Below, in pieces: positions 15,783-32,111 of a stretch of 64,000 nt of DNA (the stretch's first letter is position 1; the number at the start of each line of letters is the position of its first letter). Below the pieces are notes generated by a model. It was not told the origin of the DNA and ran no database searches. It saw only the letters and a program-made list of their open reading frames with translations. The translations under genes and the position numbers were made by a program. Location of the stretch: contig NZ_CP019300.1 of NCBI RefSeq assembly GCF_001953955.1, positions 1,054,001 through 1,118,000 of the forward strand, given 5' to 3'. The DNA comes from Prevotella intermedia ATCC 25611 = DSM 20706. Lineage in GTDB: Bacteria; Bacteroidota; Bacteroidia; Bacteroidales; Bacteroidaceae.

Positions 15783-15886
15783 AAAAGGTAGACCCTTTTA
15801 GCAAAAAAGGTAGACCTATTTGCTTGAAAAGGTAGACCTATTTTGAAGAAAGGGGAGACCTTTTCCCAGAAAACCGTCTACCTTTT
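15783..15886. repeat. 22-bp iterons (AAAAGGTAGACC)
   Basis: Four direct repeats begin at 15783, 15805, 15827 and 15849, an exact 22-bp period. The first three have AAAAGGTAGACC; the fourth is AAAGGGGAGACC. One inverted partial copy GTCTACCTTTT lies at 15876-15886. They lie between the DUF3408 gene and mobC. They are a plausible binding array for a replication, partition or relaxosome protein. Confidence 0.8.
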
Positions 15887-15895
15887 CCTTGTGGT

Positions 15896-16366: not shown

Positions 16367-16368
16367 TT

Positions 16369-17373: not shown

Positions 17374-17411
17374 TGTGATATGTTTTAATTGAATTGATTA
17401 AATAATTTTTG

Positions 17412-17460
17412 TTTGAATGATAATGATGTGTTTGAATGATATTTGAATGGTAGTTGAATG
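17412..17460. repeat. TTTGAATGAT direct repeats
   Basis: Copies at 17412, 17431, 17442 and 17453 (the last as GTTGAATG), spaced 19, 11 and 11 bp, upstream of the primase gene. The ~one-helical-turn spacing suggests a protein-binding array or an unwinding element. Confidence 0.5.
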
Positions 17461-17609
17461 ATTATTGAAAGAAAATCTCTTTTCCCAAGTTTTTCCCCTC
17501 CAAACTTTTTCATCTTTCTTCTTACTACATACTATTTTAAGTTAAGTAATTGATTTACAATGTATTTTTGTAGTACCAAGTCATACTACGAACTTACGAC
17601 ATACGGCTA

Positions 17610-18899
17610 CTACATTTGGTTGCTGCAATAACTTGGCAAGGGACAAGGAAGAATCTTCCTTACCTTATATACATAGATGGGACTGCCGCCCTCACGCCTC
17701 TTGCTCACTTTCTCAAAGCCTGCTCTTTTCAAGGCTTCGCCCATGTGCTTCAAGGATAAGGGATGATGCGTATAGTAGCCTAAATAGGTAATTATCTCTG
17801 TGGTGGTCATGTAGGAGCAATGGGGATTATCATCAGTTGGTTTCTCAAAACAGCACAGCAGCAGTTCCATCTCTGCGGTCTGCACTTGAAAATCCTCGCT
17901 CTCCCTGTATAGTTCCGCTATCTCGTCCTCGTCAAACCAATAGCGGAAACCTGATTTTAACAAGGCTTTGGCTTCCGCATAGACGGTATCCATAGAGATA
18001 GCCTTTGCCTTGTTGATGTCTATGGACAACACTTCAAAGGGTAGGAACCGTCTACTGCCCGTGGGGTCTGTCAGAAAGTCGTTGCCGTTCACCGATGCAA
18101 CGAAGCTCGCCAAGTGGGGATGTTCCTCCACATATTTGTCATAGGACATACGATACTTGACCATCGGGCAGGTAATGAGGTTCTTCAGTTCGTTTTCGTC
18201 ACGCTTGTTGAGGGCTTTGAGTTGGTCGTCAATATTTACGATAAGATTCTGTCCGATATAGGTGAGCGTGTCCTTCTCTTGCGGATATATCTTTCCCGTG
18301 TAACTGTAACCATGAAGTGCAGGCGGACAAAGCAGATCAAGGAACGAGGTCTTGAACTTGCCCTGTTCGCCTGTGAGCACGAGGCAGGTATGGTTACGGC
18401 ACTCACGGTCGTCCATTGCGTTGGCAACCACTGCCACGAGCCATTTGGTGAGGTACGGTAGCCATTTGTCGGAGTTGCGCACGACAACGCAACTTGCCAA
18501 GTCGGGAATGGCTTTCAGTGAAAGGGAAACTTTATTTCCACAATCAGGGTTACTGCTGCCTATATCCGTTGCAGACAACTTTTTGAAATACTCCTGTATG
18601 GGGTTGATGCGTGGAGAGAAACTACTCTCGATGATGGAATAGAGATTATCGGAAGATGTGATAATCCCGATGTCGTAGTCTATCTCCCTTCGGAGCGTGT
18701 TGATTTCATAGCGACCCACTTTTGAGAAATGAGCATCGTTCTTACTTCGATATTCGGTTCTTCCCAACACCGTATTGTATCTGAACTGGTAGTAAGAGGA
18801 GAGATAGGTTTCTATCTCACCGTTTTTGGAGGAAGTCTTCCTTTGCTTGGGAATATTGTTTCCGCCCTCCGATTTGCCTTTATCTGCATTCTTTTTCAT
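17610..18899 (-). CDS. VirE/VapE-type P-loop ATPase
   Basis: 429-residue protein if started at MKKNADKGKSEGG (18899). The frame is open to 19067, but the extra 56 residues have no family features. It resembles the VirE (DUF3874) primase-helicase family of Bacteroides elements, with Walker A GEQGKFKTSF, a following Walker B-like LIVNIDDQ, and the region FVASVNGNDFLTDPTGSRRF typical of this family. It probably acts with the TOPRIM primase next to it in element replication. Confidence 0.82.
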   Translation of the reverse strand: MKKNADKGKSEGGNNIPKQRKTSSKNGEIETYLSSYYQFRYNTVLGRTEYRSKNDAHFSKVGRYEINTLRREIDYDIGIITSSDNLYSIIESSFSPRINPIQEYFKKLSATDIGSSNPDCGNKVSLSLKAIPDLASCVVVRNSDKWLPYLTKWLVAVVANAMDDRECRNHTCLVLTGEQGKFKTSFLDLLCPPALHGYSYTGKIYPQEKDTLTYIGQNLIVNIDDQLKALNKRDENELKNLITCPMVKYRMSYDKYVEEHPHLASFVASVNGNDFLTDPTGSRRFLPFEVLSIDINKAKAISMDTVYAEAKALLKSGFRYWFDEDEIAELYRESEDFQVQTAEMELLLCCFEKPTDDNPHCSYMTTTEIITYLGYYTHHPLSLKHMGEALKRAGFEKVSKRREGGSPIYVYKVRKILPCPLPSYCSNQM

Positions 18900-19331
18900 T
18901 ATATGCTTGGTTTGGTTTCCAAGAGTGAAGTTATCAAGAGAATGTGAAAGTTCCAAGCATTCGGAGAGTGCTTGCATAATGTTGCGCACATTGGCAATGA
19001 ATTTCTCACGAATTTTTGACAGGAAACTGTCGGGAAGCATGGATTTAAGCCCCAAACAAGAGGACAAGTGCGTAAAGGATACAAGAAAGGCAGGTGCTTA
19101 TTTGCTACAATCCGCATCGTATTGCATCGGCTAAAACGGATATGATAAAATGGAGTGAGGAGGCAAAGAAAAAAGGCTAAAATTAAAACCGCCTTTCCTT
19201 ATTTTTCCCTGAATTTCCCTGCTGTTCCCTCGTGCTTTGAAGTATGGCAAACACTCCCTACTTTTGCAGGTAGAAACGTGCGGTGAAGCGCAAAACAAGA
19301 AAAGGAATTACAAACAAACAACAATAGAATT
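18900..19331. other. divergent regulatory gap
   Basis: Separates the leftward replication/mobilization genes from the rightward HTH genes. The plus promoter TTTG (19236-19239), 19-nt spacer, TACTTTTG (19259-19266) drives the first HTH gene. I see no clear minus-strand promoter. Confidence 0.55.
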
Positions 19332-19616
19332 ATGGGATATTTTATCATTACGGATTCAAACTGGGCAAGGCTCAGGAATGAGATACTCAGCCTTGCCGAG
19401 ACCTGCCACAAGGCATTCGGGGAACAGAGCAAGCACACCGATTGGCTGCACAACGGTGATGTGTGCAGGCTGCTCAACATCAGTAAGCGTACCTTGCAGC
19501 ACTACCGTGATACGGGTGTGTTGCCCTTTGCTCAAATCGGGCATAAGTGCTATTACAAGCGTGAGGACGTAGAGAGGTTGCTCCAAACCAAATCAGAGAA
19601 ATCAAAAAACGGATAA
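19332..19616 (+). CDS. HTH (excisionase/MerR-like) protein, first
   Basis: 94 residues with a DNA-binding domain at about 40-88: LHNGDVCRLLNISKRTLQHY, then GVLPFAQIGHKCYYKREDVE. This is the winged-helix pattern of Xis/MerR-type proteins common on Bacteroides elements. Together with its neighbour it probably regulates excision or transfer. Textbook promoter directly upstream. Confidence 0.85.
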   Translation: MGYFIITDSNWARLRNEILSLAETCHKAFGEQSKHTDWLHNGDVCRLLNISKRTLQHYRDTGVLPFAQIGHKCYYKREDVERLLQTKSEKSKNG

Positions 19617-19646
19617 AACTAAAATCAACAAATAAATAGGAAGAGT

Positions 19647-19937
19647 ATGGAACAGGTAAGAGACTTGAACATGGAGGCTGACGATATGCAGGTGGTGCTG
19701 TCCGCTATCAGCGGAGTAAGCAAGAGAATTAAGGAAGTGGCACAGACACACAAGCCGCTGTTTGGCGGTGAGCACTTCCTCACAGGTAAGGAAGTATGCG
19801 ATCGGCTGTATATCAGCCCACGCACCTTGCAGGACTATCGGGACAGGAGGATTATTCCCTATACGCAGTTCGCAGGGAAGATACTATATAAGGAGTCGGA
19901 TTTGGAAAGGTTGTTGGAGGATAGCTATAAGGAGTAG
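19647..19937 (+). CDS. HTH (excisionase/MerR-like) protein, second
   Basis: 96-residue paralog of the preceding protein. A longer N-terminal helical part is followed by LTGKEVCDRLYISPRTLQDY and IIPYTQFAGKILYKESDLER. It lies 30 nt downstream and is probably cotranscribed. Such pairs are standard in Bacteroidetes mobile elements. It marks the boundary between the mobility genes and the cargo. Confidence 0.85.
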   Translation: MEQVRDLNMEADDMQVVLSAISGVSKRIKEVAQTHKPLFGGEHFLTGKEVCDRLYISPRTLQDYRDRRIIPYTQFAGKILYKESDLERLLEDSYKE

Positions 19938-19998
19938 CAAACATGTTATCTTCTGAATATGTTATAAAATCTAAAATAATCAACAATGTGATTAATTA

Positions 19999-20044
19999 TT
20001 ACACTTTTGTGTAGAGTATATATGCTTTATTACATCTACTTTTG
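19999..20044 (+). promoter_or_regulatory. operator plus -7 box of the ThiF-like gene
   Basis: Operator TTACACTTTTGTGTAG (19999-20014, one mismatch to the palindrome), 22-nt gap, then TACTTTTG (20037-20044). No TTTG is found at the -33 position; the operator occupies its edge. The same geometry recurs at two other promoters, indicating an activator-dependent promoter. Confidence 0.8.
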
Positions 20045-20064
20045 CCTAAAATAATTATTTCGTT

Positions 20065-20814
20065 ATGGAAGAAAGATATAGTAGAAACAGGCTCTATGTG
20101 AGCGTGAAAGAGCAAAGTGTGATAAAGGATTATAAGATATTCCTTGGTGGTGCAGGTATAGGCAGCATCGTGGCAGAGTGTGCCTTGAGGTTTGGCTTCG
20201 AGCATATCACCATTGTTGATGGTGATAAGGTTGAGGAAAGCAACCTGAACAGGCAGAACTATACAGAGAATGATATTGGCAGATACAAGGCAGAATGTTT
20301 GGCAGAGCGTTTGCAAAGTATCAATCCTGATGCGCAGATAGATTACCATACAGAGTTCCTTAACCCTGATAACATCGAAGAGATGTTGAATGGGCATAAT
20401 GTTGCCATCAATGCATTGGACTTTAAGGACGATACGCCTTTTATCTTTGATAGGATTTGCAAAGAAAGAAAAATTCCCGTACTGCACCCATACAACTTTG
20501 GTTGGGCTGGCTTTGTTACGGTTGTAGACCCATTGGGGCATTCCTTATCTGAACTGACTGAAGAGCCAAAGGGATTTGAATTAAAGGTGGCTGAGTATGT
20601 TACCGGACACTGGGCTTTTTGGAATCAGCCTAAAGAGTGGTTAGACAAAATTGTAACCCAATATAAAAAGGAAAGCGAAATGCTACCACCTCCACAATTA
20701 TCCATAGCCTCGTGGATTACCGCAGGCTTGTGTACAACGGCAATGTACAATCTTGCTACAGGAAAACCTGTGAACTATTTTCCAAAATTCTATTTCTCTT
20801 CACTTTTGCAGTAA
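20065..20814 (+). CDS. ThiF/MoeB/E1-like adenylyltransferase
   Basis: 249-residue single-domain E1-like protein. It has the ATP-binding loop FLGGAGIGS (about residues 28-36), the acidic and Arg residues of DGDKVEESNLNRQ (about 54-66), and NALDFKDD. The family adenylates the C-terminus of a peptide or ubiquitin-like protein. The zinc-binding C-x-x-C pairs of MoeB/ThiF are absent and no catalytic-Cys motif is evident, as in compact peptide-modifying members such as MccB-like proteins. Its promoter carries the same operator as the N-acyltransferase and peptide genes, so it belongs to the cargo regulon. Its substrate could be the precursor peptide; this is inference. Confidence 0.85.
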   Translation: MEERYSRNRLYVSVKEQSVIKDYKIFLGGAGIGSIVAECALRFGFEHITIVDGDKVEESNLNRQNYTENDIGRYKAECLAERLQSINPDAQIDYHTEFLNPDNIEEMLNGHNVAINALDFKDDTPFIFDRICKERKIPVLHPYNFGWAGFVTVVDPLGHSLSELTEEPKGFELKVAEYVTGHWAFWNQPKEWLDKIVTQYKKESEMLPPPQLSIASWITAGLCTTAMYNLATGKPVNYFPKFYFSSLLQ

Positions 20815-20837
20815 AGTAAAATATCGTTTTAGAACAA

Positions 20838-21581
20838 TTAGTTTAAGGTAGCTCTTGAAATAGCTTCGGTGATATTCGCCACGCCTAATTTGTCAAAGGC
20901 GTGGCGTTTATAGGTTTTGATAGAATCTAACGAGCGGCACATTCTGTCCGCAATTTCCGTCATGGTAAGCCCTGCTGCCGACAACCGTAGCACCTCAAGT
21001 TCTTCTTTTAAAGACATTCCTTCACACTCTTTCCATCGATGCCCCTCGAAAGAGTATTTCCAATAGTTTCTGAGCCCATTCTTGTGGAACTCTACATGCC
21101 CCACTGTTTTATGTGAAGATAGTGATACGACACACATACCTATCCATATCTTGCCCTCATCTGTCAATAAAATGGGAGTAAGCTGATGGTTTATCAGATT
21201 GCTTTTTGTTCCACTCTTCAGATGAAAGTGATAGGACATAGAACATTGGTATTTATCGACGTTATCGAAAGTATCAAAGAACTTAAACCCACTGCTGTTT
21301 AGCTCAACGAGCATTTTTTGTTCGTCCTCTGGGACATGCTCTAAGTAAAAGCTGTACCCTAATTCCTTTACTTCCTTTGCCGTATGCCCACAAAGAAACA
21401 AAGGGTTGTCCGACACATAAAGAAATTCCTGCCTGTAATAGTCTATCAAGTAAACACTTTGATAGGTAACACGAGCAAAAGCCTCTACGGTTTGCACCAA
21501 CGTAGAGAGTACATTAGAATCATAGCCAGGTGCATTACGCACGGTATTTGATGCTATAAAGAAATCTTTTATGTCTGTCAT
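20838..21581 (-). CDS. LuxR-type regulator with PAS-like sensor
   Basis: 247-residue regulator. The N-terminal two thirds look like a PAS-type sensor (VYLIDYYRQEFLYVSDNPLFL then EEYQ-like strands). The C-terminus is a LuxR/GerE HTH (LSAAGLTMTEIADRMCRSLD then KTYKRHAFDKLGV). The open frame starts at 21632, but that ATG lies upstream of the -7 box TACTTTTG (21629 to 21622), so MTDIKDFFIA at 21581 is taken as the start. It is divergent from the N-acyltransferase and has operator palindromes in between. It is the obvious candidate to bind them. Confidence 0.85.
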   Translation of the reverse strand: MTDIKDFFIASNTVRNAPGYDSNVLSTLVQTVEAFARVTYQSVYLIDYYRQEFLYVSDNPLFLCGHTAKEVKELGYSFYLEHVPEDEQKMLVELNSSGFKFFDTFDNVDKYQCSMSYHFHLKSGTKSNLINHQLTPILLTDEGKIWIGMCVVSLSSHKTVGHVEFHKNGLRNYWKYSFEGHRWKECEGMSLKEELEVLRLSAAGLTMTEIADRMCRSLDSIKTYKRHAFDKLGVANITEAISRATLN

Positions 21582-21621
21582 ATATGCTAAACGTGCTAAG
21601 GTTCTCTGATATATTTCACTA

Positions 21622-21674
21622 CAAAAGTACATTTTTTATGTGAAATACCGCAAAAAGATTACACAAAAGTGTAA
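21622..21674 (-). promoter_or_regulatory. luxR-type gene promoter with upstream operator
   Basis: Minus-strand TACTTTTG (21629 to 21622) with TTTG (21654 to 21651) 21 nt upstream: a complete promoter, unlike its targets. A perfect operator TTACACAAAAGTGTAA (21659-21674) lies just upstream, suggesting autoregulation. Confidence 0.7.
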
Positions 21675-21697
21675 AAAACAAAGAGAGAAATGCCAAA

Positions 21698-21743
21698 TTA
21701 CACAAAAGTGTAATAGATGATATTTGCATAGGAAGTATTTTTG
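21698..21743 (+). promoter_or_regulatory. operator plus -7 box of the N-acyltransferase gene
   Basis: Perfect palindrome TTACACAAAAGTGTAA (21698-21713), 22-nt gap, TATTTTTG (21736-21743), and no -33 box. The -7 box lies inside the longest open frame, so it sets the gene start at 21772. The operator at 21659 is 39 bp away, start to start. Confidence 0.82.
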
Positions 21744-21771
21744 CCGTATAAATCAAGAAACAAAAAGCATT

Positions 21772-22401
21772 ATGGAAAAACAGATTGCAACATTTAAGGA
21801 CTATGCTATCTTCATGGCAGACAAAACGAGTCTGATGGAAATAGCACAGTTTGTGGTCAGGGAAAATTACTCCCATCACTTATCTTCATTTACAGAGAAA
21901 GAAGTAAATGAAGACATCAAATCAGTGCTTGAAGAAGAGGAATATCTGTATGATAACAAATCTCATATCTATATTGCAAGGGATGCCTTTGGGAATATAA
22001 TTGGCTGCATCAGGAGTTTTCATTGGGATAAACACAAGACTCTTCCTATCGAAAAAATATATGGGATAAACCCACTGAATGCTATTCACCAGGAAAGTAA
22101 ATATAGTTTTTGGCATATCGGACGCTTTGCCGTTGCAAAGGATTCGGGAATATCAACATTGACATTGTTCAAGCGGTTAATGGCTTTGGCAGTAAAGCCG
22201 ATAGTTGAGGACAAGTACAGCTATATGATTGCAGAGATTGACAGCAAACTATTGAAAGTAATGAAGGTGTTGGGATTTGGTACACGTCAAATCGGAAAAT
22301 CCATCGACTACCTGACATCCGAAACCGTTCCTGTATGTTCCAGTAAGAGAGGTATTATGGGCTTCTTTTCCAGATATGGTGAACTTTGCAAGGCTGCATG
22401 A
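21772..22401 (+). CDS. LuxI/FeeM-like N-acyltransferase (GNAT fold)
   Basis: 209 residues starting at MEKQIATFKDY. Its pattern matches autoinducer-synthase-like and N-acyl-amino-acid-synthase proteins: IYIARDAFGNIIGCIRSF (about 66-83), then WHIGRFAVAKDSG (114-126) and the helix LFKRLMALAVKPIVEDKY. Such enzymes transfer a fatty acyl group from acyl-ACP to an amine. It is divergently paired with the LuxR-type regulator and shares its operator, so it could make a signal. Alternatively it could acylate the peptide, as GNATs do in selidamide-type RiPPs. I cannot decide which from sequence. Confidence 0.75.
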   Translation: MEKQIATFKDYAIFMADKTSLMEIAQFVVRENYSHHLSSFTEKEVNEDIKSVLEEEEYLYDNKSHIYIARDAFGNIIGCIRSFHWDKHKTLPIEKIYGINPLNAIHQESKYSFWHIGRFAVAKDSGISTLTLFKRLMALAVKPIVEDKYSYMIAEIDSKLLKVMKVLGFGTRQIGKSIDYLTSETVPVCSSKRGIMGFFSRYGELCKAA

Positions 22402-22486
22402 TTACACTTTTGTGTAATATTTCAGACAACAAATTCAGAATTACACAAAAGTGTAACGATATAATTTGGAGATATAAATATATTTG
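22402..22486 (+). promoter_or_regulatory. double operator and -7 box of the peptide operon
   Basis: Two perfect palindromes, TTACACTTTTGTGTAA (22402-22417, directly after the acyltransferase stop) and TTACACAAAAGTGTAA (22441-22456), start 39 bp apart as in the luxR/acyltransferase gap. From the second there is a 22-nt gap to TATATTTG (22479-22486). No -33 box. Confidence 0.85.
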
Positions 22487-22582
22487 CAACAGAAATAATC
22501 AAGTCGACAAGATTATAAAACAGACCTAACTGTTAAAAGGAGCAATGCCGGAAGCTATAAGATGGCAATAAATAATAAAAAT

Positions 22583-22714
22583 ATGAAAAAGAATTTTGAT
22601 GCAGAAAAGGAGTTCGGTTTCGAAGAACTCGAAGATCGTTTGGAAATGGCTCAAGTAGCCGCAGGGGACGTTGCTCGTTGTGGTGGAACAGTCGAACACG
22701 AAAAAGTAGTTTAA
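22583..22714 (+). CDS. candidate RiPP precursor peptide
   Basis: 43-residue peptide too short for routine calling. It starts MKKNFDAEKEFG, continues FEELEDRLEMAQ (13-24), then VAAGDVARCGG (25-35), and ends TVEHEKVV. An alternative start at 22562 adds seven residues (MAINNKN) and has GGAAG 7 nt upstream. The acidic helical leader with a double-glycine step is typical of secreted ribosomal peptides. If processed after Gly-Gly the core would be 8 residues. Arg32 is next to the Cys-Gly-Gly and is the only Arg downstream of the likely helical leader. First gene after the operator-controlled promoter; an 11-bp hairpin separates it from the modifying enzymes. Confidence 0.7.
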   Translation: MKKNFDAEKEFGFEELEDRLEMAQVAAGDVARCGGTVEHEKVV

Positions 22715-22829
22715 TTCCAACACACAAAATGTTATAATGAATCCTGCGTGATAAAAATTATGTTTTGGCTGAAATAAAAATCCTTTACTCGATTTAACAC
22801 GCATTAGTTTATTTAACAAGATGTTCACT

Positions 22830-22868
22830 AAGGGTTGTGTTGGAGTCTTAAATTTCGACACAACCCTT
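22830..22868 (+). terminator. hairpin between precursor and enzyme genes
   Basis: Perfect 11-bp stem AAGGGTTGTGT (22830-22840) and ACACAACCCTT (22858-22868), 17-nt loop, with only a weak A/T tail. Probably a leaky terminator or RNA processing signal that keeps precursor mRNA in excess over the enzyme mRNA. Confidence 0.65.
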
Positions 22869-22884
22869 TAAATATTTAAAGAAT

Positions 22885-23984
22885 ATGGATATAAATAACA
22901 TACATTTATCTGCTTATGGAAATACTTACATTGCCACGATTGCAAGCAAAGCTTACAAAATTAATGCTACTTTTTATAGAGTTCTATGCTGTATAAAGTC
23001 TGGGCTTTCCGTGGAAGATGCTATTTATCAGGTTTCTGTTGAAATAGATACAGATTATGATGTGTTGTTTGAGAAATTCTGTTCTTTTATAAAAAGAACT
23101 CAAAGGGTTAAACACGAAAGTTATATACGATACAAGCGTGCTGTAATAAAGGAAAAGTTGGTAAATAAAATTGCTTGTTCATTATTATTTTTGTACTCAA
23201 AGTATGTGTTCATATTATTGCTTTTTGCATGCATAACAACAAATGCCACCTATCTTTATTTTAATTACGAGCACTTTGGAAGCCCCTCATACTATACTAT
23301 AGAAATGGGCATTATGGTGTTTATCGGTTATATATTATCACTTATTATACATGAAATTGGCCATGCAACAGCTACAGCATCAATGGGGAAAAGAGCTAAA
23401 GAAATAGGTTTTGGATTTTATATAATCTTTCCTGTATTTTATACAGATGTAACATCTGTTTGGAATATGAAAAAAAAGAGCGCATTCTTGTAAGTTTCGG
23501 AGGTGTATATTTTCAACTTCTGGTTAACGTTTTTATCATAGGCTTAATCTACTTTTTTCCACTGTGTGCATTGATAAGAGTCATGGACGGTTTGGTTATC
23601 TCAAATATATTGGTTGTTATGATCTCTATGACACCATTCTTTAGAAATGACGGCTATTGGATATTATCGGATTTTTGGGATATTCCGAATCTGTTGAAAA
23701 AATCTGATGATGCTCTTCTCCATCCTTATTCCCGACAAGAATATGACAACAAAAAAGAAAGATTTAAACTTATAGTGTTTGGTTTTGCCAATAATATGTT
23801 TAGGATATATGTATTTATACGTTTAGTACTAAATTTATTTAGCACTCTAATAGCCATGATTGGTATGATGACTCAAAATATAATGCTAAACGTAGTAAAC
23901 ATAATCATATCTATCATTGGTATATATTGGATTCTTACGAGTTACTATAAAATATTTCAATATGGAAATAAGAACAGATATTAA
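22885..23984 (+). CDS. PqqD-like/M50 metalloprotease, -1 frameshift
   Basis: Two overlapping frames (22885-23493 and onward to 23984) form one M50 site-2-protease-type membrane protein. Residues ~1-75 look like a PqqD-type winged helix (YKINATFYRVLCCIKSGLSVEDAIYQV). Then come membrane segments, catalytic HEIGH (156-160) and the third ligand in FYTDVTSVW (Asp188). The reading frame stops after KKKSAFL. A -1 shift at A_AAA_AAG (23472-23478) continues as KKKERILVSFGGVYFQLL, the expected M50 continuation, giving about 366 residues. It could be programmed frameshifting, a homopolymer sequencing error or a decayed gene. Probable role: intramembrane processing of the modified peptide. Confidence 0.75.
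23467..23493 (+). other. slippery site A_AAA_AAG and zero-frame stop
   Basis: ATG (23467) is followed by eight As and G. In the zero frame the codons are AAA AAA AAG, so the heptamer A_AAA_AAG known from dnaX-type -1 frameshifting is present. The zero-frame TAA is at 23491-23493. I see no strong downstream hairpin. Confidence 0.6.
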
Positions 23985-25026
23985 GAAAATCATCTTCCAA
24001 TATGCTGATATAGAAATAGGCATGGAACATGAGCAACGGGAAAAATATTTGCGTTTTCAGCGCAACGTAGAAAAGATATTTGGCCTGAAAGTAGGCATGG
24101 ATGAATACAATAAATTATGTGGTGTACTTGCTTTAAATCATACGTGCGAACAAAATCTAATGATGGATAATACTTTTCATGTAACGGAGTATCAACCATC
24201 AATGTCTCCCCGTATTTATATTACTCTACACCTTGGATGTTATGAAGAAATCGCTTACTACCTTATCAATAAGGAAGGAAAGATTTGTGTACCAGTGACT
24301 GAACGAGTCTATATGCACGAGATAGAGCATTATAATGCAAATTTAGGGAAGAGAGGCATAAAACCCTCTCAGCTGGTTTTTGTAAATATAGAGTCCAACA
24401 CGGGACTTCGACAGATGATACGATATGCTCAAGCAGGATATAGCCTGCTATGCTACATTGATGGTAATTCTGGCATTGGAGGAATGACAAGAAGTGACTC
24501 TAAATTAGAAAGAATCCATTTCTTCAACACAACAATTCACGTCCGTAAAGGTATCGAATACATAGTCAGAATTCTAAATCGGAAAGTTGTCCCTATTTAT
24601 ACCTACATCGAGGATATAAACTATCAACTAAAAATCGTTCTTATGCCTCCCATTGAAAAGATTCCTTGTCATTCCCTTACTGCCAGTTTGTGGCAGTCTT
24701 TTCTTCATGTTATATGGAATTATTATTGGCAATGGGAAGCATGGCTCTATGTTGATGAATTTATTGAACAATCTGCCGAAAGGGAATCTGAGCAAAGCCG
24801 CTATATGCTCAACACAGACCGATATCTTCCACTCATAAAGTCTAGCATATGTTATTATTATGATAGAAAGACAAACAATTTGGTAAAAGTTGGTAAAAGA
24901 TTGTTCAGATTGTTAAGTGACTTAGAACAATCATCTATTAGCTCATATTCTGAATTGATAAAGTATATTCCCAACGAAACGCTTGTCAATGACATTCTCA
25001 CCAAGAAATTAATAATAAGAATATGA
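23962..25026 (+). CDS. LpxL-like acyltransferase with C-terminal PqqD-like module
   Basis: 354 residues from ATG 23962, overlapping the protease stop by 23 nt. It resembles lysophospholipid/lipid A acyltransferases: HLGCYE (90-95) is the H-x4-E active site, and YIDGNSGIGG stands where the family's second conserved block lies. The last ~65 residues (CYYYDRKTNNLVKVGKRL, then LSDLEQSS, ending TKKLIIRI) look like a PqqD-type domain, which is foreign to lipid A enzymes. This points to a peptide rather than lipid A as acceptor. Translationally coupled (ATGA) to the arginase-like gene. Confidence 0.75.
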   Translation: MEIRTDIKKIIFQYADIEIGMEHEQREKYLRFQRNVEKIFGLKVGMDEYNKLCGVLALNHTCEQNLMMDNTFHVTEYQPSMSPRIYITLHLGCYEEIAYYLINKEGKICVPVTERVYMHEIEHYNANLGKRGIKPSQLVFVNIESNTGLRQMIRYAQAGYSLLCYIDGNSGIGGMTRSDSKLERIHFFNTTIHVRKGIEYIVRILNRKVVPIYTYIEDINYQLKIVLMPPIEKIPCHSLTASLWQSFLHVIWNYYWQWEAWLYVDEFIEQSAERESEQSRYMLNTDRYLPLIKSSICYYYDRKTNNLVKVGKRLFRLLSDLEQSSISSYSELIKYIPNETLVNDILTKKLIIRI

Positions 25027-26216
25027 CGCTTACCACATCAAGAGCTTGGCAGATAGTTCAAAAAGATTCAAGGGTCGTTGTTTCGAACATCTTGACAGGA
25101 CGTAGTTTGTCAGTCGAATCCCATATAAGGACATTATTGGATTTTTGCAAAACTGCAAAAGCGGAAAAAGATATTGTTACATATCTTAAACAGTTTATAC
25201 CCTCCGCCTCTATAGATGCAACAATTTCTACTCTTTTAAGAAAGAGAATTCTAGTTTCTGATGAAGATGATATTTTTACTGATACGATTCCTGTTCGTCC
25301 AACGTTATGGGGATGTGCTCATTCTGTAAGTTCAAGTACGCAGATTGTCATATTGGGAGCGCCGTTTGGCTTGGGTAATGCCGAGGATATTAGATGCAAG
25401 AATTTTCCGTTACATCTTCGCGATTTCGTCCATGGCTATTATTCTTTTAGAAATCAGGTAGATAATCTTGATAGATTAAATCCTATCGTAGTTGGTCCTT
25501 GGTTTGATTTCCCTAATTTTAAGGAAACACTCCGAAGTAAATCCATTGCTGATATCGGCGATGTTATTTTCTACTGCGGAGAAACACCTGAGATGTTTTA
25601 CACCCGTTTGAAAAATATTTCCAAGGACATAGTTCATAATGGATTAATCCCCATATGTATAGGTGGTGACCATTCTATAACTTATCCAATAGTCGCAACT
25701 CTTAACGAAATAAACACACCATTTGTCATACTTCATTTTGACGCTCATGCCGATATGAAGAATGGTGTAGTGATGAAATTGCATGAACTATCAGGCTATA
25801 AACTTGTAAACCATGCCAATGTTATCAAGCACATTATTGGTTTTGAGAATGTTGAACATATTTATCAGATTGGCATCCGCGAGCCATTCCTTTACGACAA
25901 CAAAAAAATTACAAGAATTAGCGTTCAAGACATAAACTCTTCAAAAAACACAGACATTTTAAAAGAGATAGAGACGCCTGTGTATATTACTTTCGACGTA
26001 GATTTTTTCGATCCTTCACTTGTTCCAGGAACGGCAACGGTATTGCCGAATGGAGGAGATTATAACAACACTTTTCGATTTCTGGCACAGATATTAAAAC
26101 ATAAACGTATCTTAGGCATGGATATAGTGGAAGCTAATCCAGCACTTGATGTACAAAACAAAACAACACTTCTGGTAAATAATTTATTAATGCAAATAAT
26201 CAGTCAAATAAAATGA
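25023..26216 (+). CDS. arginase-fold enzyme with N-terminal PqqD-like module
   Basis: 397 residues. Residues ~1-85 resemble PqqD (VVVSNILTGRSLSVESHIRT to LLRKRILVSD). Residues 100-397 form an arginase/agmatinase domain with the manganese ligands CIGGDHS (His217), FDAHADM (Asp240, His242, Asp244) and TFDVDFFDP (Asp325, Asp327). In RiPP pathways, peptide arginases convert Arg side chains to ornithine; the fused module and the gene position make that role likely here. A free-substrate arginase or agmatinase is the alternative. It shares ATGA with genes on both sides. Confidence 0.82.
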   Translation: MTLTTSRAWQIVQKDSRVVVSNILTGRSLSVESHIRTLLDFCKTAKAEKDIVTYLKQFIPSASIDATISTLLRKRILVSDEDDIFTDTIPVRPTLWGCAHSVSSSTQIVILGAPFGLGNAEDIRCKNFPLHLRDFVHGYYSFRNQVDNLDRLNPIVVGPWFDFPNFKETLRSKSIADIGDVIFYCGETPEMFYTRLKNISKDIVHNGLIPICIGGDHSITYPIVATLNEINTPFVILHFDAHADMKNGVVMKLHELSGYKLVNHANVIKHIIGFENVEHIYQIGIREPFLYDNKKITRISVQDINSSKNTDILKEIETPVYITFDVDFFDPSLVPGTATVLPNGGDYNNTFRFLAQILKHKRILGMDIVEANPALDVQNKTTLLVNNLLMQIISQIK

Positions 26217-28336
26217 AGAAGTATTTAATCAGCTTGCTTGTCATGCAGGTAACATTATACTGCATGGCTCAGAATGTTACGAAAGACAGTACAAGCGCAG
26301 AAAAAACGAACAAGTTTGATTCTACACAGGTACTGAAAGAGGTTGTCGTAAAGGCTTACCGCCCTGTCTCGAGAGTAACTCGCGAGGGATTTACCTATTC
26401 CGTGAAGGGCACACCGCTTGCACTGTCAGGCTCGCTGACTGATGTTCTTGAACAGATGCCCATGGTCAAGAAAGGTCTGGGCGGCTTTGAGGTTGTGGGC
26501 AAAGGCACAGCCGTATTCTATCTAAACGGACGGAGAATGTACGATATATCCGAATTGAATAGCATCGCGGCAAAGGATGTGAAAAATGTGGAGGTCATCA
26601 CTTCGCCTGGGGCACAGTATGATTCGTCCATCAGTTCTATTATCAAGATTACAACCACGTCAAATGACTTGGAGGGTTTAACCGTGGATGCTCGTAGCAC
26701 ATGGTATCAAAATCGACATAGCAGCTGGATAGGGCAGTTGGACATGCGCTACAGCACAAAGCGTTGGACAATCTACGACAACATCAAGTATCAGACCGAC
26801 AACGACTTGACGTGGAAAAACCTTACTCAGACTGTGTATGCCGACTCGCTTTGGCATGAGGTCAGTGCTGAGAGTGAGTATCGCAAACAACGTAAACTCA
26901 GCAATATTTTCGGCATAGACTATCAGTTCTCTGAAGGTAATTTTATCGGAGGCCGCTATTCTCTGACTTACGGCTTTCGCAACAGCATGTTCCTTGAGTC
27001 AACAAACGACATCATGGCCAATGGATCGCATTATGATTTCCTGATGACAACGGGGGAGGAACGGGACCATAAACGTCCGCAGCACCTTTTCAACATCTAT
27101 TATTCAGGCAAACTAAGCGGTTATATACTGAATGCTGATGTTGATTATCTCACAAACTCAGTTGTGAAGGATAACGTCTACACGGAAACCAGCGAAGCAA
27201 ATGCGAACCGTATGGTTGACGCACTTAGTAATGTTAGAAATCGTATGCTCTCGCTGCGCACTTCCATCGGCCATAAGCTTTTTGGCGGTGACGCAACCAT
27301 CGGCATGGAATATCGAGACACCAAACGAAATGACGATTACACGAACTCGGGCGAGTATATCCCTACCTCCATCAGCCTTCTGAAGGAGACTCTATACGCA
27401 CCATTCGTGGATTATTCTGTTCTTACCAAGACAGGTCTATTCGGATTGGGAGTACGCATGGAGAGCACGAAGTTCAGATATTACGCAAATGGCGAGTATG
27501 TGCCTGAACAAAGCCTGTCAATGACAAGGCTTTTCCCCAAATTATCTTGGGGCATCCGTTTTGGCGCATTGCAGGCACAGTTGAAGTATTCTACTGGCAT
27601 CAATCGTCCAACTTACCGACAGTTGAGCAGCAACATTCTCTACGGAAGCCTCTATACCTATCAGACAGGTAATCCATTACTCCGTCCAGAATACATACAC
27701 GAACTGACATTGCAAGGCTTATGGCGTTTCATTCAGTTCCAAGCAACCTATTCAGACACTCGCAATGCAATTATCAATTGGGCCACGCAACTCGAATCAC
27801 AGCCAGCGGTATCGGTCATGTCTTATAAGAATCTTCCGTCTGTCAGGCAGATACGTCTTGCAATGGTATTTTCTCGGACATTTGGCACCTGGAGTCCGCA
27901 ACTGACACTCGCAATGAATAAGCAGTACCTTCACCTTGACACTCAGTTGGGAACTGTCAGTTTGCATGATCCCATTTGGGTGGTTAAGTTTTCCAACAGC
28001 CTGAAGGTGAGCCCGACATTTACGATGTTCCTTACAGCCAACTATCAGAGTACGGGCGATTATCGCAATGTTCACCTCACCCATCATGTATGGTCTGTCA
28101 ATTTCAATGCTACCAAGCGTTTTTGTCATGACCGCTTCAGCGTGCAGCTCAAGGTCGGCGACATATTCAATACGCAAAAGGATGGCAACAAAATTCATAG
28201 CGACCGCATGATTATGAACCTTCTGAATACCTACGACTTCCGCGCAATCTCCTTGACCCTGCGTTATCAATTACATCAAAAGGACTACAAGCATCATCAA
28301 CACGGCAATGTGGATGAAGAGTTGAGACGACTATAA
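26213..28336 (+). CDS. TonB-dependent receptor-like outer-membrane protein
   Basis: 707 residues with a signal peptide (cleavage after YCMAQ, about residue 20), a plug-like domain with LKEVVVKAYRPVSRVTREG and VEVITSPGAQYD (about 45-150), and a C-terminal beta-barrel of the OMP_b-brl_3 type. There is no N-terminal CarboxypepD domain, unlike most SusC-type receptors. The start overlaps the arginase-like stop, so it belongs to the peptide operon. It may export the product or take it up, or give immunity; none can be shown here. Its base composition is visibly more G+C-rich than the four genes before it. Confidence 0.85.
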   Translation: MKKYLISLLVMQVTLYCMAQNVTKDSTSAEKTNKFDSTQVLKEVVVKAYRPVSRVTREGFTYSVKGTPLALSGSLTDVLEQMPMVKKGLGGFEVVGKGTAVFYLNGRRMYDISELNSIAAKDVKNVEVITSPGAQYDSSISSIIKITTTSNDLEGLTVDARSTWYQNRHSSWIGQLDMRYSTKRWTIYDNIKYQTDNDLTWKNLTQTVYADSLWHEVSAESEYRKQRKLSNIFGIDYQFSEGNFIGGRYSLTYGFRNSMFLESTNDIMANGSHYDFLMTTGEERDHKRPQHLFNIYYSGKLSGYILNADVDYLTNSVVKDNVYTETSEANANRMVDALSNVRNRMLSLRTSIGHKLFGGDATIGMEYRDTKRNDDYTNSGEYIPTSISLLKETLYAPFVDYSVLTKTGLFGLGVRMESTKFRYYANGEYVPEQSLSMTRLFPKLSWGIRFGALQAQLKYSTGINRPTYRQLSSNILYGSLYTYQTGNPLLRPEYIHELTLQGLWRFIQFQATYSDTRNAIINWATQLESQPAVSVMSYKNLPSVRQIRLAMVFSRTFGTWSPQLTLAMNKQYLHLDTQLGTVSLHDPIWVVKFSNSLKVSPTFTMFLTANYQSTGDYRNVHLTHHVWSVNFNATKRFCHDRFSVQLKVGDIFNTQKDGNKIHSDRMIMNLLNTYDFRAISLTLRYQLHQKDYKHHQHGNVDEELRRL

Positions 28337-28809
28337 GTTTGTCAAGCGGAGGATGTTATATAAATTAAGTGACTGGTTGATAGTAACCTAATTTATAGAA
28401 CTTCTCTAAGAATAACTTAAGAGTTTTCCCCGTTTCATCTATAGATTCAAGCGGGTTATGGGGGAATTCGAAGAGTATCATACGAACCATCTGGGACAAA
28501 AGATGCTATAGCTTGCGGCAAATGGGAATGAGTTTATATCACAGATACCTATAAAGGAGTGTAAGTATAAATTATAATGAGCGAGATATCTGTCACTGCT
28601 TCTTTGCCTATGAGCCTGAGATTATTCTTCAAAGGAATGTCCAGCAAATAACGATGAAGCAATAAAAGAAGAAAGACAAATGTAGTTACTGCGTAGTATA
28701 ATTATTTCGAGCACTTTACTACATGCAAATCTTTTCCCTTTCACCGTTTTATCCTTACTGTAGTTATGTAGTAAGATAATATCAATGAAAGAGAAAAGAT
28801 ATCAAATAA
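28337..28809. other. structured gap between cargo and integrase genes
   Basis: 473 bp between convergent gene ends. Two inverted repeats are present: TATAAATTA (28359-28367) with TAATTTATA (28389-28397), and a 15-bp pair with one mismatch, ATCTTTTCCCTTTCA (28729-28743) with TGAAAGAGAAAAGAT (28786-28800), whose loop holds CTTACT/AGTAAG. Likely terminators for the two converging transcripts. No gene is seen. Confidence 0.5.
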
Positions 28810-29226
28810 TCAATTATTCACATTTCCCAATAAGAGAATTGGAGTTATGACGGATACAGATAGATTTAACTTATTATAGACGTACTTCCTGAACAACTGT
28901 TCTTCGGTACTGTCTAGCAGAAAGGAGAGGCTGATGATAATTGAAAGAGGATAGATTGGTGCATAGCCTTTGAGTTGTCCGTTGATGATGACTTCCTCTT
29001 CACCTGCACCCATCTCTCTGGGAGACAGATTGGAGGATTTCATTATCATTTGCAATCTGTGGTTGAGTTTTCTCCACGTTACACCGAAGAACCTCACGAG
29101 TTCGCTCGCCGTCATGGCTATCTCTCCGTTTCCCTTGCGAATGACCTGCATATTGCAGCCCCAATCAAAGAAACTGCGCTGATTGTCCGTGCTGGTCATA
29201 GTTCTTGGTTTATAGTTCGTTTTCAT
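28810..29226 (-). CDS. small element protein downstream of integrases
   Basis: 138 residues. The region MTASELVRFFGVTWRKLNHRLQ (about 38-59) looks like an HTH, followed by GYAPIYPLSIIISLSFLLD, a pattern I associate with element-borne proteins, not named with confidence. It lies 40 nt after the second integrase on the same strand and is probably cotranscribed, so it may influence integration or excision. Function unknown. Confidence 0.6.
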   Translation of the reverse strand: MKTNYKPRTMTSTDNQRSFFDWGCNMQVIRKGNGEIAMTASELVRFFGVTWRKLNHRLQMIMKSSNLSPREMGAGEEEVIINGQLKGYAPIYPLSIIISLSFLLDSTEEQLFRKYVYNKLNLSVSVITPILLLGNVNN

Positions 29227-29265
29227 GCCGTTTCCTCCATTTTACAGATGGATATATCCAAAGGT

Positions 29266-30516
29266 TCATAAGCCTCTCTCCGCAGTCCTCTTTCTCTTTG
29301 CCGATTGCTTGACAATGAGTCTGTCCATATCCTCAGATATTTTCTTGTCCGTTACCTGTGCGTAAATCTGCGCGCTGGATATGGAGGCGTGTCCCATCAT
29401 CTTGGCTATGCTCTCAATGGGTATTCCTGCGCTCAGGCTCATCGTACCGAAAGTGTGCCGTGCAACATGGTACGACAATCTCTGTCTGATACCGCAAGCC
29501 TTACCCACAATGCACAGGTTCTTGCCCATCACGCTACGGCTGCAATGCGGTTGGAAGACAAGGCTGTCGCCTTTTTCTTTTACAGTCTGCTGTTCTTCGT
29601 TTCCTGCCTGCGCATTCCTACAATAGTTGATGATGGCTTCAGCTACGGGATGCAGCGGTACGACAAACTCAACCTTTGTTTTCTGTCTCTCCTTGCGGAT
29701 ATACCTCTGTCCGTCTGCTGCCGTTTGGATATGCCTATATTCCAAAGTCTCCATATCAGCGATAGCCATACCAGTGAAGCAGGAAAAGACAAACATCAGC
29801 CGTGCCAACTCTGCTTTCCTGTCATTCATCCTCATTGCCATAAGTTTCATTACATCACTCTTTTGCAGGAAGCGTATCTTCTTTTCCTCCTTCTCATACT
29901 TGGCGTTCTCAAAGGGATTGCAGCGGATAATCCTCTTGCTCACCGCACGAAACATAAGTCGGCTCAGCCAACAGAGATTGGTATTGACAGTCGATGCTTT
30001 CAGCCCACGCTTTTTCAGGAAGAAACGGTATTCCTCAACCAAACTCTCCGTAATGGTGACTATGGGTATGTCCTTTAGTCCTTTATTTCCGATAAAATCA
30101 CGGAGGTTTCTATCAGAATAGGATAGGTTCAGAAAAGTCCCCTCTGCCCTTGACTTGCCCACGCTCTCTTGGACGGATTGTAGTTCCGCCTTACTCATAT
30201 CAAGGAGCGTTGTCGGATTGGTGGCAATACCTTGCAGGTGGTTCTTGATAAGTTCCACGCTTACTACTCCGTCCCTCGTCAATATGTCCCGATAGGTTTT
30301 TTCTATCAATTCACTGAACTCGCAGATTCTTTGATTTGTCTTCCTATTGGTTGTCAAGCTTTGCTTGGCGTTCCACTCGGAGGGCTGGCACCCTTCGCCT
30401 GTGGTAATGGCTGTGTTCTTTCCGTCTATGGTGATACGGCAGAGAATGGGGGTATTGCCGTCTGACTTTATTTTCTGTCTGTTGATATAGAACAGTATCT
30501 TGAATGTACTTCTCAT
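29266..30516 (-). CDS. tyrosine integrase, second of tandem pair
   Basis: 416-residue phage-type tyrosine recombinase. The Arm-binding N-terminus begins LFYINRQKIKSDGNTPILCR, followed by a SAM-like core-binding domain (about 105-205). The catalytic domain has HVARHTFGT (H-x-x-R), GHASISSAQIY and the Tyr nucleophile in QIYAQVTD. The first catalytic Arg position reads FTGMAIADMETL, as in other Bacteroidetes integrases where this Arg is shifted. It lies 65 nt after the other integrase. Confidence 0.92.
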   Translation of the reverse strand: MRSTFKILFYINRQKIKSDGNTPILCRITIDGKNTAITTGEGCQPSEWNAKQSLTTNRKTNQRICEFSELIEKTYRDILTRDGVVSVELIKNHLQGIATNPTTLLDMSKAELQSVQESVGKSRAEGTFLNLSYSDRNLRDFIGNKGLKDIPIVTITESLVEEYRFFLKKRGLKASTVNTNLCWLSRLMFRAVSKRIIRCNPFENAKYEKEEKKIRFLQKSDVMKLMAMRMNDRKAELARLMFVFSCFTGMAIADMETLEYRHIQTAADGQRYIRKERQKTKVEFVVPLHPVAEAIINYCRNAQAGNEEQQTVKEKGDSLVFQPHCSRSVMGKNLCIVGKACGIRQRLSYHVARHTFGTMSLSAGIPIESIAKMMGHASISSAQIYAQVTDKKISEDMDRLIVKQSAKRKRTAERGL

Positions 30517-30581
30517 AATGATCTTGATTGAATTGTCCGTGTTTTATTTGACTAAATACAATAGTGTATGAAAGCAAATGG

Positions 30582-31811: not shown

Positions 31812-32100
31812 ACGCTTTGATGTTTTGTGACAAAATTACCAAATTCAAAGCGTTCCTCACTTATGCAGAAGACTGCCGACCGAAGCAACAGCCACACGAG
31901 CGAAAATAATTCAGTTACCGAACATTACTCCATCGTTACCTATCCCAAAATCAGGTAATGCTTTGGTAACTGAACTTCTGCCTAAATCTGCATATTCCTG
32001 CCCTTTTTGAAAAGAGTACTTCTATGCAAATCGTTCCGTTTCTCCCACATTATCAGTTAGTTTTCGCCAACTTCGATTTTGCTTCATTTTCTGTGATTAG

Positions 32101-32111
32101 TTACACGGTAA
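32101..32111 (+). repeat. attR core of the mobile element
   Basis: TTACACGGTAA, identical to attL at 13792-13802. Immediately inside, read on the minus strand, come TAATCA and AAAATG, mirroring the left end. Confidence 0.85.

What the first reader, a model, noticed from the sequence alone, without database searches (positions are those of the whole stretch)
19999..28336. Possible new class of lipopeptide RiPP pathway carried on a mobilizable element
Seen: a short Gly-Gly peptide followed by a tightly coupled set (M50 protease, acyltransferase, arginase fold, outer-membrane receptor), with an E1-like enzyme, LuxR-type regulator and LuxI/FeeM-like acyltransferase upstream under one shared operator. 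Known: peptide arginases (OspR type) and GNAT acyltransferases co-occur in selidamide-type RiPPs, E1-like enzymes occur in microcin C-type systems, and PqqD domains bind precursor leaders. Inference: Arg to ornithine conversion plus fatty acylation yields a lipopeptide. I know of no described system with this exact set in Bacteroidota.
Basis: partly seen in the sequence, partly recalled or inferred. Interest (0 to 1): 0.92.

Follow-up and report, generated by a model that had tools for sequence, protein, structure and literature searches.

The report
Probable acylated-peptide operon on mobile element
A Prevotella-type mobile element carries an operon that probably makes a small modified (likely fatty-acylated, arginine-to-ornithine) peptide, placed behind a separate regulatory module that on sister elements sits in front of quite different peptide genes.

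Summary
The gene set is real; relatives show it is two things joined. (1) An operon: precursor peptide, M50 protease, LpxL-like acyltransferase (LPLAT), arginase, outer-membrane barrel (22583-28336). A same-genus genome (L063) has the same order; Neolewinella has the same enzymes with twelve precursor ORFs. Of 19 distinct LPLAT loci read, 18 have a short precursor-like ORF; all ten with an M50 share an L-x-x-R-L-E leader. All 14 precursors beside an arginase have Arg-Cys in the core; none of 22 elsewhere does. This is a RiPP family of which I found no description, with LPLAT constant and arginase or radical SAM optional. (2) ThiF-LuxR-FeeM with TTACAC-N4-GTGTAA operators is no part of that pathway: it is a regulatory cassette which on sister elements (backbone 83-84% identical in one) precedes other RiPP cargo. 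Corrections: the arginase is PF00491, not OspR-type; 'Gly-Gly' is not a leader motif; ornithine is unlikely to be the general acylation site; the M50 is split at an A8 run, so activity in this strain is uncertain. All chemistry is inferred; no structure could be predicted.

The parts
13792..32111 (.). Mobilizable/integrative element, about 18.3 kb, ends marked by the direct repeat TTACACGGTAA
   Evidence: Backbone homology to L125 begins at window 13779 and ends at 32105, with a replaced middle; the repeat occurs only at 13792 and 32101 in the window. Ends are inferred; no empty site was read.
14037..19067 (-). Backbone: relaxase 14037-15098, NikA-like 15082-15513, DUF3408 15896-16366, toprim 16369-17373, VapE-like 17610-19067
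   Evidence: Pfam PF03432, PF21983, PF11888, PF13155, PF05272 over cut-off; 72-88% aa identity to NZ_CP072340.1
19332..19937 (+). Two small helix-turn-helix (excisionase-like) genes
   Evidence: PF12728 in both; 'excisionase-like' is inferred
19999..20014 (+). Operator copy in front of the ThiF gene (1 mismatch)
20065..20814 (+). ThiF/E1-like adenylyltransferase, part of the regulatory module
   Evidence: PF00899 E 5.3e-37; 93-96% identical in L098, L099, L101
20838..21632 (-). LuxR-type regulator (GerE helix-turn-helix; N-terminal domain unassigned)
   Evidence: PF00196 E 4.4e-10; full-length matches at 86-96% in 6 other same-genus genomes, two of them with internal stops
21659..21674 (+). 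Operator
   Evidence: exact match
21698..21713 (+). Operator
   Evidence: exact match
21772..22401 (+). FeeM-like N-acyl amino acid synthase, part of the regulatory module
   Evidence: PF21926 27.3 bits, cut-off 27; 94-99% identical in L098, L099, L101
22402..22417 (+). Operator
   Evidence: exact match
22441..22456 (+). Operator
   Evidence: exact match
22480..22495 (+). Promoter-like TATATTTGC kept in sister loci; backbone homology ends at 22491 (L099, L101) or 22560 (L098)
   Evidence: the Bacteroidales promoter consensus is recalled
22583..22714 (+). Precursor peptide MKKNFDAEKEFGFEELEDRLEMAQVAAGDVARCGGTVEHEKVV (alternative start 22562)
   Evidence: Leader and Arg-Cys shared with L063 (40 aa): over 22 codons 7 identical, 11 synonymous, 4 nonsynonymous; alignment
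22885..23493 (+). M50 (HExxH) protease, N-terminal part
   Evidence: daptide_HExxH E 2.7e-11, LiaK E 1e-10, both below cut-off; HEIGH in the translation
23460..23984 (+). M50 protease, C-terminal part in another frame; junction at the A8 run about 23470-23477
   Evidence: daptide_HExxH E 5.6e-15, below cut-off; single frame in L063, L015, L041
23962..25026 (+). LpxL/HtrB-like acyltransferase (LPLAT) with C-terminal extension
   Evidence: 33% to L063; homologues L041 and L046 pass PF03279; HX4E kept
25023..26216 (+). Arginase-family enzyme with a roughly 95-residue N-terminal extension
   Evidence: PF00491 E 1.1e-47; GGDHS, DAH.D and D.DFFDP conserved with L063 and L041
26213..28336 (+). OMP_b-brl_3 outer-membrane beta-barrel
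   Evidence: PF14905 E 1.2e-48
28810..31811 (-). Backbone right arm: 138-aa protein 28810-29226, integrases 29266-30516 and 30582-31811
   Evidence: PF00589 in both integrases, no Pfam hit for the 138-aa protein; 72-89% aa identity in G1056 C117

Best explanation
A RiPP operon of a Bacteroidota family for which I found no description, carried as exchangeable cargo on a mobilizable element behind a transferable ThiF-LuxR-FeeM regulatory module. Proposed order of events. (1) LuxR, possibly responding to an N-acyl compound made by FeeM, binds paired TTACAC-N4-GTGTAA operators and turns on the cargo promoter. (2) The precursor is made with a leader containing ELEDRLEMAQ. (3) The arginase acts on the conserved core Arg next to Cys, giving ornithine. 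(4) The LpxL-like acyltransferase, at the inner membrane, transfers a fatty acyl group to the peptide, more likely to the alpha-amine freed by leader removal or to a core Cys/Ser/Thr than to ornithine only. (5) The M50 protease cuts the leader at the membrane. (6) The OMP serves release, uptake or self-protection; a host C39 exporter may help. Shown by sequence: gene order, conserved leader, Arg-Cys with arginase, cargo exchange, operator conservation. Inferred: every chemical step, the signal and the regulator-operator contact.
For: Same-genus L063 has peptide-M50-LPLAT-arginase-OMP in the same order (LPLAT 33%, arginase 35%, OMP 32% to the window), then a C39 exporter. Neolewinella L041 has 12 precursor ORFs, M50, arginase, LPLAT, OMP. 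Leader pattern L-x-x-R-L-E-[MTL] in a small ORF: window plus 9 of 9 other M50 loci, 0 of 9 LPLAT loci without M50, 0 of 28 control loci (0 of 3328 small ORFs) (the pattern was chosen after seeing hits). Arg-Cys in the core: 14 of 14 precursors in 3 arginase loci, 0 of 22 in 13 other loci; arginase in no other of the LPLAT loci. Cargo exchange: G1056 C117 matches window 14056-22491 at 84.4% and 28654-31097 at 83.1%; what lies between is replaced there by OMP, a peptide, radical SAM and a C39 exporter. L110 has diverged ThiF, LuxR, FeeM next to OMP, six tandem precursors, radical SAM and an exporter-like ABC gene.
Against: M50 is frame-broken in this strain. The acidic residue of the HX4E dyad is kept in the window but is K, R, L, F or Y in the other 16 LPLATs aligned, so activity is not assured. 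Recognition domains could not be shown: best hhalign probability 41%; a PqqD hit only at E 0.037 in one relative. LuxR shows no autoinducer domain at E up to 1. L027 has an LPLAT but no precursor that I could find. No exporter lies in the window operon.
Confidence: 0.62

Rival explanations
1. Selidamide-like chemistry: the arginase makes ornithine and the acyltransferase then acylates that ornithine side chain.
For: Arginase and LPLAT genes are neighbours in window, L063 and L041. Selidamides carry acyl groups on ornithine (PMC12703449, section 4).
Against: The same LPLAT family sits beside precursors without any Arg in the predicted core at 10 of 13 loci lacking arginase (19 of 22 precursors; core boundary set at a fixed distance from the leader motif), so ornithine cannot be its general acceptor; it is LpxL-like, not GNAT.
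Confidence: 0.15
2. Ornithine-lipid-like synthesis: the arginase supplies free ornithine, FeeM (OlsB-like) N-acylates it and LPLAT (OlsA-like) O-acylates it; the peptide ORF is incidental.
For: One GNAT-like acyltransferase, one LPLAT and an arginase within 6 kb; FeeM also weakly hits Acetyltransf_5 (E 0.053). The Ols comparison is recalled.
Against: FeeM is not found in the loci of the other 18 LPLATs and occurs with other cargo; LPLAT homologues hit PF03279; the peptide changes mostly synonymously.
Confidence: 0.06
3. The product is a metal or nutrient carrier: a Cys/ornithine peptide exported and re-imported through the TonB-receptor-like OMP.
For: An OMP lies in the operon and OMP-like genes lie near LuxR in most of the module loci read. 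Cys in the core at 14 of the 16 loci.
Against: L043 and L067 and L072 lack Cys in the core; no metal regulator or inner-membrane importer was searched for.
Confidence: 0.15
4. The operon in this strain is decaying: the M50 frameshift is a true inactivating change and the cluster is silent cargo.
For: M50 split in two frames while open in L063, L015, L041; no unusually stable RNA fold for programmed frameshifting (z 0.25 and -0.41).
Against: LPLAT, arginase and OMP are open; A8 runs are prone to assembly error and slippage, and the zero frame reads A-AAA-AAG, a heptamer used for -1 frameshifting elsewhere (recalled).
Confidence: 0.3

Closest known systems
Enteropeptins / KgrD arginase (PF00491)
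   Same: PF00491 arginase acting on a RiPP core, Arg adjacent to Cys (as described in PMC12703449, section 4)
   Different: KgrD needs a radical-SAM-made thiomorpholine; no radical SAM in the window by tblastn with two queries; the operon has LPLAT and M50
OspR/FlmR/OhkR peptide arginases (pfam12640)
   Same: Arg to ornithine in a RiPP core; flm and ohk source organisms are Bacteroidota (recalled)
   Different: Different Pfam family; [quoted passage not shown] different precursor ('DD(I/V)LF')
Selidamides (kamptornamide, phaeornamide) and nostolysamides
   Same: Acylated RiPPs, partly on ornithine (passages of PMC13060382; PMC12703449)
   Different: Use GNAT acyltransferases on lanthipeptides; here an LpxL-like LPLAT and a different leader
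Daptide and epipeptide M50 proteases (NF041824, NF058609)
   Same: M50 of the window and of L041 match these models best
   Different: Far below the equivalog cut-offs (42-93 bits against 225-300)
DAG-RiPPs of Bacteroidota (PMC12636315, passages only)
   Same: Lipidated RiPPs, partly from Bacteroidota
   Different: Lipidation through lipobox and the lipoprotein pathway, not a dedicated LPLAT
Bacteroidales GG-motif/C39 exporter RiPP clusters (PMC10352776: abstract, passages and section 13)
   Same: Radical SAM, C39 exporter and OMP clusters like the cargo of L101 and L110
   Different: That main text holds 0 occurrences of M50, arginase, acyltransferase and LuxR

Membership tests
RiPP pathway (general) | Short precursor with conserved leader and variable core next to maturases | tested here: met
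   18 of 19 distinct LPLAT loci; paralogues with constant leader in L041, L045, L046. The ORF of L024 is the weakest case.
RiPP pathway (general) | Modified mature peptide | not testable with these tools
   needs mass spectrometry
RiPP pathway (general) | RiPP recognition element in maturases | tested here: inconclusive
   structure prediction unavailable
OspR-type peptide arginase (pfam12640) | Pfam12640 membership and motifs EEH(N/H)EAF, LDIDLDYFSC | tested here: not met
   PF00491 is the only family over cut-off; motifs not in the translation
KgrD-type RiPP arginase (PF00491) | PF00491 arginase with metal-ligand motifs in a RiPP cluster | tested here: met
KgrD-type RiPP arginase (PF00491) | Radical SAM thiomorpholine partner | tested here: not met
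   tblastn with two radical SAM queries finds none in the 64 kb window or in L063
Selidamide | GNAT acyltransferase in the maturase operon | tested here: not met
   acyltransferase of the operon is LPLAT-like; FeeM goes with the regulatory module
LpxL/HtrB LPLAT | PF03279 match | tested here: inconclusive
   window protein no hit, L041 and L046 homologues just above cut-off, L063 none
LpxL/HtrB LPLAT | HX4D/E catalytic dyad (motif recalled) | tested here: met
   met in window (HLGCYE), not met in the other 16 aligned
GG-leader / C39 exporter bacteriocin | Double-glycine leader end and C39 exporter in cluster | tested here: not met
   no exporter among the operon proteins; GG not in L063; the host genome has 5 PF03412 matches at 4 places, none in the window
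LuxI/LuxR quorum sensing | Autoinducer-binding domain in LuxR | tested here: not met
   only DNA-binding-type hits plus one DUF at E up to 1
LuxI/LuxR quorum sensing | Acyl-signal synthase next to LuxR with shared operator-like sites | tested here: met
   FeeM 27.3 bits, cut-off 27; sites in both gaps
Microcin C-type (E1 enzyme on the precursor) | E1 enzyme tied to the precursor | tested here: not met
   no ThiF by tblastn at E 1e-3 in the loci of the other 18 LPLATs; one search had one remote 472-aa ThiF-like ORF in L070 at E 1.9e-4; ThiF follows LuxR instead

The most novel reading that the evidence does not exclude
A LuxI/LuxR-like cassette (FeeM + LuxR + ThiF with palindromic operators) in Prevotella acts as a plug-in density switch for interchangeable RiPP cargo, and one cargo belongs to a new phylum-wide class of acylated RiPPs made by LpxL-derived acyltransferases; in Chitinophagaceae, where LPLAT and its peptide sit directly before a histidine kinase and a LytTR-type regulator, the lipopeptides are pheromones, a Gram-negative counterpart of Agr.
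Probability: 0.3. Interest if true: 0.88.

Novelty: new variant of a known kind. Interest (0 to 1): 0.7.

Why it matters
If right, lipid A-type acyltransferases have been recruited to make acylated ribosomal peptides across Bacteroidota, adding an acylation enzyme class to the GNAT and lipoprotein routes named in the papers seen. The match of Arg-Cys cores with arginase is a clean prediction that two-gene co-expression can test. The cargo exchange behind a constant operator/promoter shows how Prevotella may trade peptide systems while keeping one control circuit.

Tried and rejected
Rejected: ThiF and FeeM as maturases of this peptide (they follow LuxR, not LPLAT). Rejected: OspR membership (wrong Pfam family). 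Rejected: 'Gly-Gly' as leader end. Considered, not supported: programmed -1 frameshifting of M50; the slippery heptamer is in frame but no unusually stable downstream fold was found. Led nowhere: tblastn of the LPLAT in plasmids, no match; three viral-contig scans with LPLAT, FeeM, LuxR, no relatives; tblastn of the arginase in plasmids, 554 records, the annotated ones among the ten listed being agmatinase or arginase family; LPLAT profile against solved structures, 0 matches; arginase profile there, ordinary agmatinases and arginases, 72 matches; hhalign of the three putative leader-binding domains, weak. Weak LPLAT profile hits (11 loci, best 1.5e-7) were not counted as family; of these I read 3 of 11 (L033, L034, L036), which lie beside ketoacyl-synthase-like genes and look like ordinary LpxL-type enzymes. 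The single genome-contig scan used M50, not LPLAT, so named relatives are few (7 loci).

Literature: nine searches showed no paper on LPLAT-type RiPPs, on the leader motif (0 papers) or on a ThiF-LuxR-FeeM module; apart from the four papers opened I saw only listings, and most subscription journals are not in that library, so this is no proof of absence in print.

Counts and dropped rows: 19 distinct LPLAT loci with context = window, L015/L016/L040 (one genome), L024, L025, L026/L044/L045/L068 (two Edaphocola species, counted once), L027, L041, L042, L043, L046, L063, L064, L065, L066, L067, L069, L070, L071, L072. One search lists L044 and L045 both, and leaves out L024, L025, L027, L072; the precursor ORFs of L024, L025 and L072 have no Arg-Cys as read. 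Among the 12 L041 ORFs one is cut by masked bases and some cores repeat exactly. One search used 9 M50 loci besides the window.

One search was an incomplete submission of mine that was not accepted.
Full report
WHAT IS THERE. The window is bases 1054001-1118000 of contig 1 of an unnamed 2.67 Mb, two-contig genome. I infer a Prevotella-type host: part of the element's backbone (64% of the 13800-22490 query) has 84-85% identical relatives in P. nigrescens F0103 and Prevotella sp. oral taxon 299. Between about 13792 and 32111 lies an 18.3 kb mobilizable element: relaxase, NikA-like, DUF3408, toprim and VapE-like genes, two small helix-turn-helix genes, a cargo slot, a 138-aa protein and two phage-type integrases. 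The 11-mer TTACACGGTAA occurs only twice in the window, at 13792 and 32101, which fits two attachment sites.

THE OPERON. Peptide (start 22583 preferred, because its 22 residues up to RLEM match the length in L063), M50, LPLAT, arginase and OMP follow one another on the plus strand; from the second M50 piece on, each gene overlaps the next by 4-23 bases. Pfam finds PF00491 (arginase) and PF14905 (OMP) strongly, and M50 weakly; NCBIfam's best M50 models are the daptide and LiaK/YydH proteases, below cut-off. The LPLAT has no Pfam hit itself; its homologues in L041 and L046 just pass PF03279, lipid A acyltransferase, that of L063 has none. The arginase keeps its metal motifs and has an extra N-terminal stretch of about 95 residues shared with L063 and L041.

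RELATIVES OF THE OPERON. LPLAT or M50 queries found homologues in 2 of 393 order-level genomes including the own, 5 of 395 phylum-level genomes including the own, 12 of 295 class-level genomes including the own, 7 of the 12 weak, 3 of 160 same-genus genomes including the own and one weak one, 12 of 147 genomes of the family of G432, 9 strong, and 7 loci by M50 in the named collection. Reading the surroundings: L063, same genus, has peptide-M50-LPLAT-arginase-OMP in the window's order, then a C39 exporter; L041, Neolewinella aurantiaca, has 12 precursor ORFs, then M50, arginase, LPLAT and OMP, then grasp/spasm maturases; L015 (Draconibacterium MAG), L045 (Edaphocola) and L046 (Chryseobacterium MAG) have radical SAM and no arginase; L042 and L067 have M50 and LPLAT with a kinase and regulator; L043 has M50, LPLAT and OMP; L072 adds aromatic amino acid lyase and ketoacyl synthase genes and grasp/spasm; L064-L066 and L069-L071 have precursor and LPLAT followed by a histidine kinase and a response regulator, checked by Pfam only for L065 (PF06580; response regulator with LytTR) and by size and look for the rest; L024 and L025 have LPLAT with a different short peptide; L027 has none that I found. 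By tblastn, ThiF and FeeM are in none of these loci, LuxR only through its short DNA-binding part in L024 and L025, and arginase only in window, L041 and L063.

PRECURSOR TESTS. The window peptide and L063 share FEELEDRLEMAQ[VI]AA[GS]DV[AI]RC; over a 22-codon block 7 codons are identical, 11 differ only synonymously, 4 change the residue, as expected of a selected coding sequence. The pattern L-x-x-R-L-E-[MTL] in small ORFs is found in the window (1 of 529 small ORFs) and in 9 of 9 other M50 loci, in 0 of 9 LPLAT loci without M50 and in 0 of 28 control loci (0 of 3328 small ORFs); the stricter LE[ED]RLE[MT] is in the window and in 6 of the 9. The pattern was drawn from the data, so this shows specificity and is no independent discovery test. 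Arg-Cys occurs in the core of 14 of 14 precursors from the 3 arginase loci and 0 of 22 from 13 other loci; by locus, 3 of 3 against 0 of 13 has a chance of 1 in 560 (my arithmetic; 1 in 455 with the two Edaphocola loci merged). Relatedness of loci is not corrected for.

WHAT LPLAT DOES. LPLAT is the constant enzyme of the family; arginase and radical SAM were not seen together. Because 19 of 22 precursors without arginase have no Arg in the predicted core, and L043, L067 and L072 have no Cys there either, a common acceptor such as the amine exposed by leader removal, or a hydroxyl, is more economical than ornithine. A caution: H90, G92, D167 and Q257-W258-E259 are invariant in 17 aligned sequences, but the acidic residue of HX4E is present only in the window sequence.

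THE REGULATORY MODULE. A same-genus search with LuxR matched 88 of 160 genomes at E 0.001 or better, but many matches cover only the DNA-binding domain; full-length matches at 86-96% lie in six other genomes, two with internal stops. I read 17 regions with long matches plus L075, found by FeeM. ThiF and FeeM at 93-99% accompany LuxR in L098, L099 and L101, with the same operators (exact sites: window 4, L098 4, L099 4, L101 5, L100 3, L102 2, L103, L104 and L113 one each, none in the other nine module loci). None of these loci, nor L115-L118, L124, L125, gives a tblastn hit to LPLAT, arginase or M50. The cargo differs: L101 with L115 has OMP-like protein, a 51-aa peptide, radical SAM and a C39 exporter; L098 has OMP, exporter and a short membrane protein; L110, with ThiF 53%, LuxR 42% and FeeM 37%, has OMP, six tandem 64-aa precursors, radical SAM and an exporter-like ABC gene. 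Of ten barrel-like proteins near LuxR tested, eight hit PF14905 and two only carboxypeptidase-regulatory domains, as does that of L101. L108 showed no such gene and L105 ends at a contig edge.

CARGO EXCHANGE. Against G1056 contig 117 the window matches at 14056-22491 (84.4%) and 28654-31097 (83.1%), with what lies between replaced. Homology to L098 runs to 22560 and to L099 to 22491. The four-way alignment shows both operators (one with a mismatch in L099) and a promoter-like TATATTTGC or TACATTTGC kept, then divergence. In P. nigrescens F0103 the same slot holds arsenic-resistance genes without the module.

THE BROKEN M50. The two M50 frames meet at ATG-AAA-AAA-AAG. In L015, L041 and L063 the protein is one frame. 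Assembly error, slippage and true breakage are all open; no unusually stable fold was seen.

EXPORT. The host genome has 5 matches to the C39 peptidase family at 4 places outside the window, two of them in open frames of 721 and 740 codons, so an exporter in trans is possible.

LITERATURE. PMC12703449 (abstract, section 4, the first of three parts of section 5, and a term search) treats peptide arginases as pfam12640 and names KgrD as a pfam00491 case. PMC10352776 (abstract, passages, section 13) mines Bacteroidales RiPPs; its main text holds none of M50, arginase, acyltransferase or LuxR. PMC12636315 and PMC13060382 were seen as passages only. No paper on this family or module was found in the nine searches listed under Tried and rejected.

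LIMITS. No structure could be predicted. Recognition domains, all chemistry, the FeeM signal and product function are inferred. The host name is inferred.

Noticed in passing
window 15782-15891: Four 22-bp direct repeats (AAAAGGTAGACC core), iteron-like, beside the mobilization genes.
   Followed up: no
L064, L065, L066, L069, L070, L071 (and L042, L067 with M50): LPLAT with a roughly 50-aa precursor-like ORF (often core CC[IF]DTxPPxP) directly upstream of a histidine kinase and response regulator (Pfam checked only for L065: PF06580 and LytTR); possible lipopeptide pheromone system.
   Followed up: partly
L110 3338-4672: Six tandem near-identical 64-aa RiPP-type precursors next to radical SAM, an exporter-like ABC gene, OMP and a diverged ThiF-LuxR-FeeM module.
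   Followed up: partly
L124 20426-24875 (Prevotella nigrescens F0103): The same mobilizable backbone carries arsenic-resistance genes in the cargo slot.
   Followed up: partly
L072 544-12243: LxxRLE precursor and M50 beside aromatic amino acid lyase, ketoacyl synthase, LPLAT and grasp/spasm maturase genes; the acyl group may be made in the cluster.
   Followed up: no
L063 upstream of its LxxRLE precursor: A second small peptide with an MGGG-type leader end (MEALDKEGMANIMGGGWYYLPDG...) lies there; the C39 exporter of L063 may serve this one.
   Followed up: no
L125 20405-24688 (Prevotella sp. oral taxon 299): Same backbone with a TetR-like regulator, an 839-aa OMP-like protein and a 397-aa lipoprotein-like gene as cargo; TTACATTGC lies at both element ends instead of TTACACGGTAA.
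   Followed up: partly
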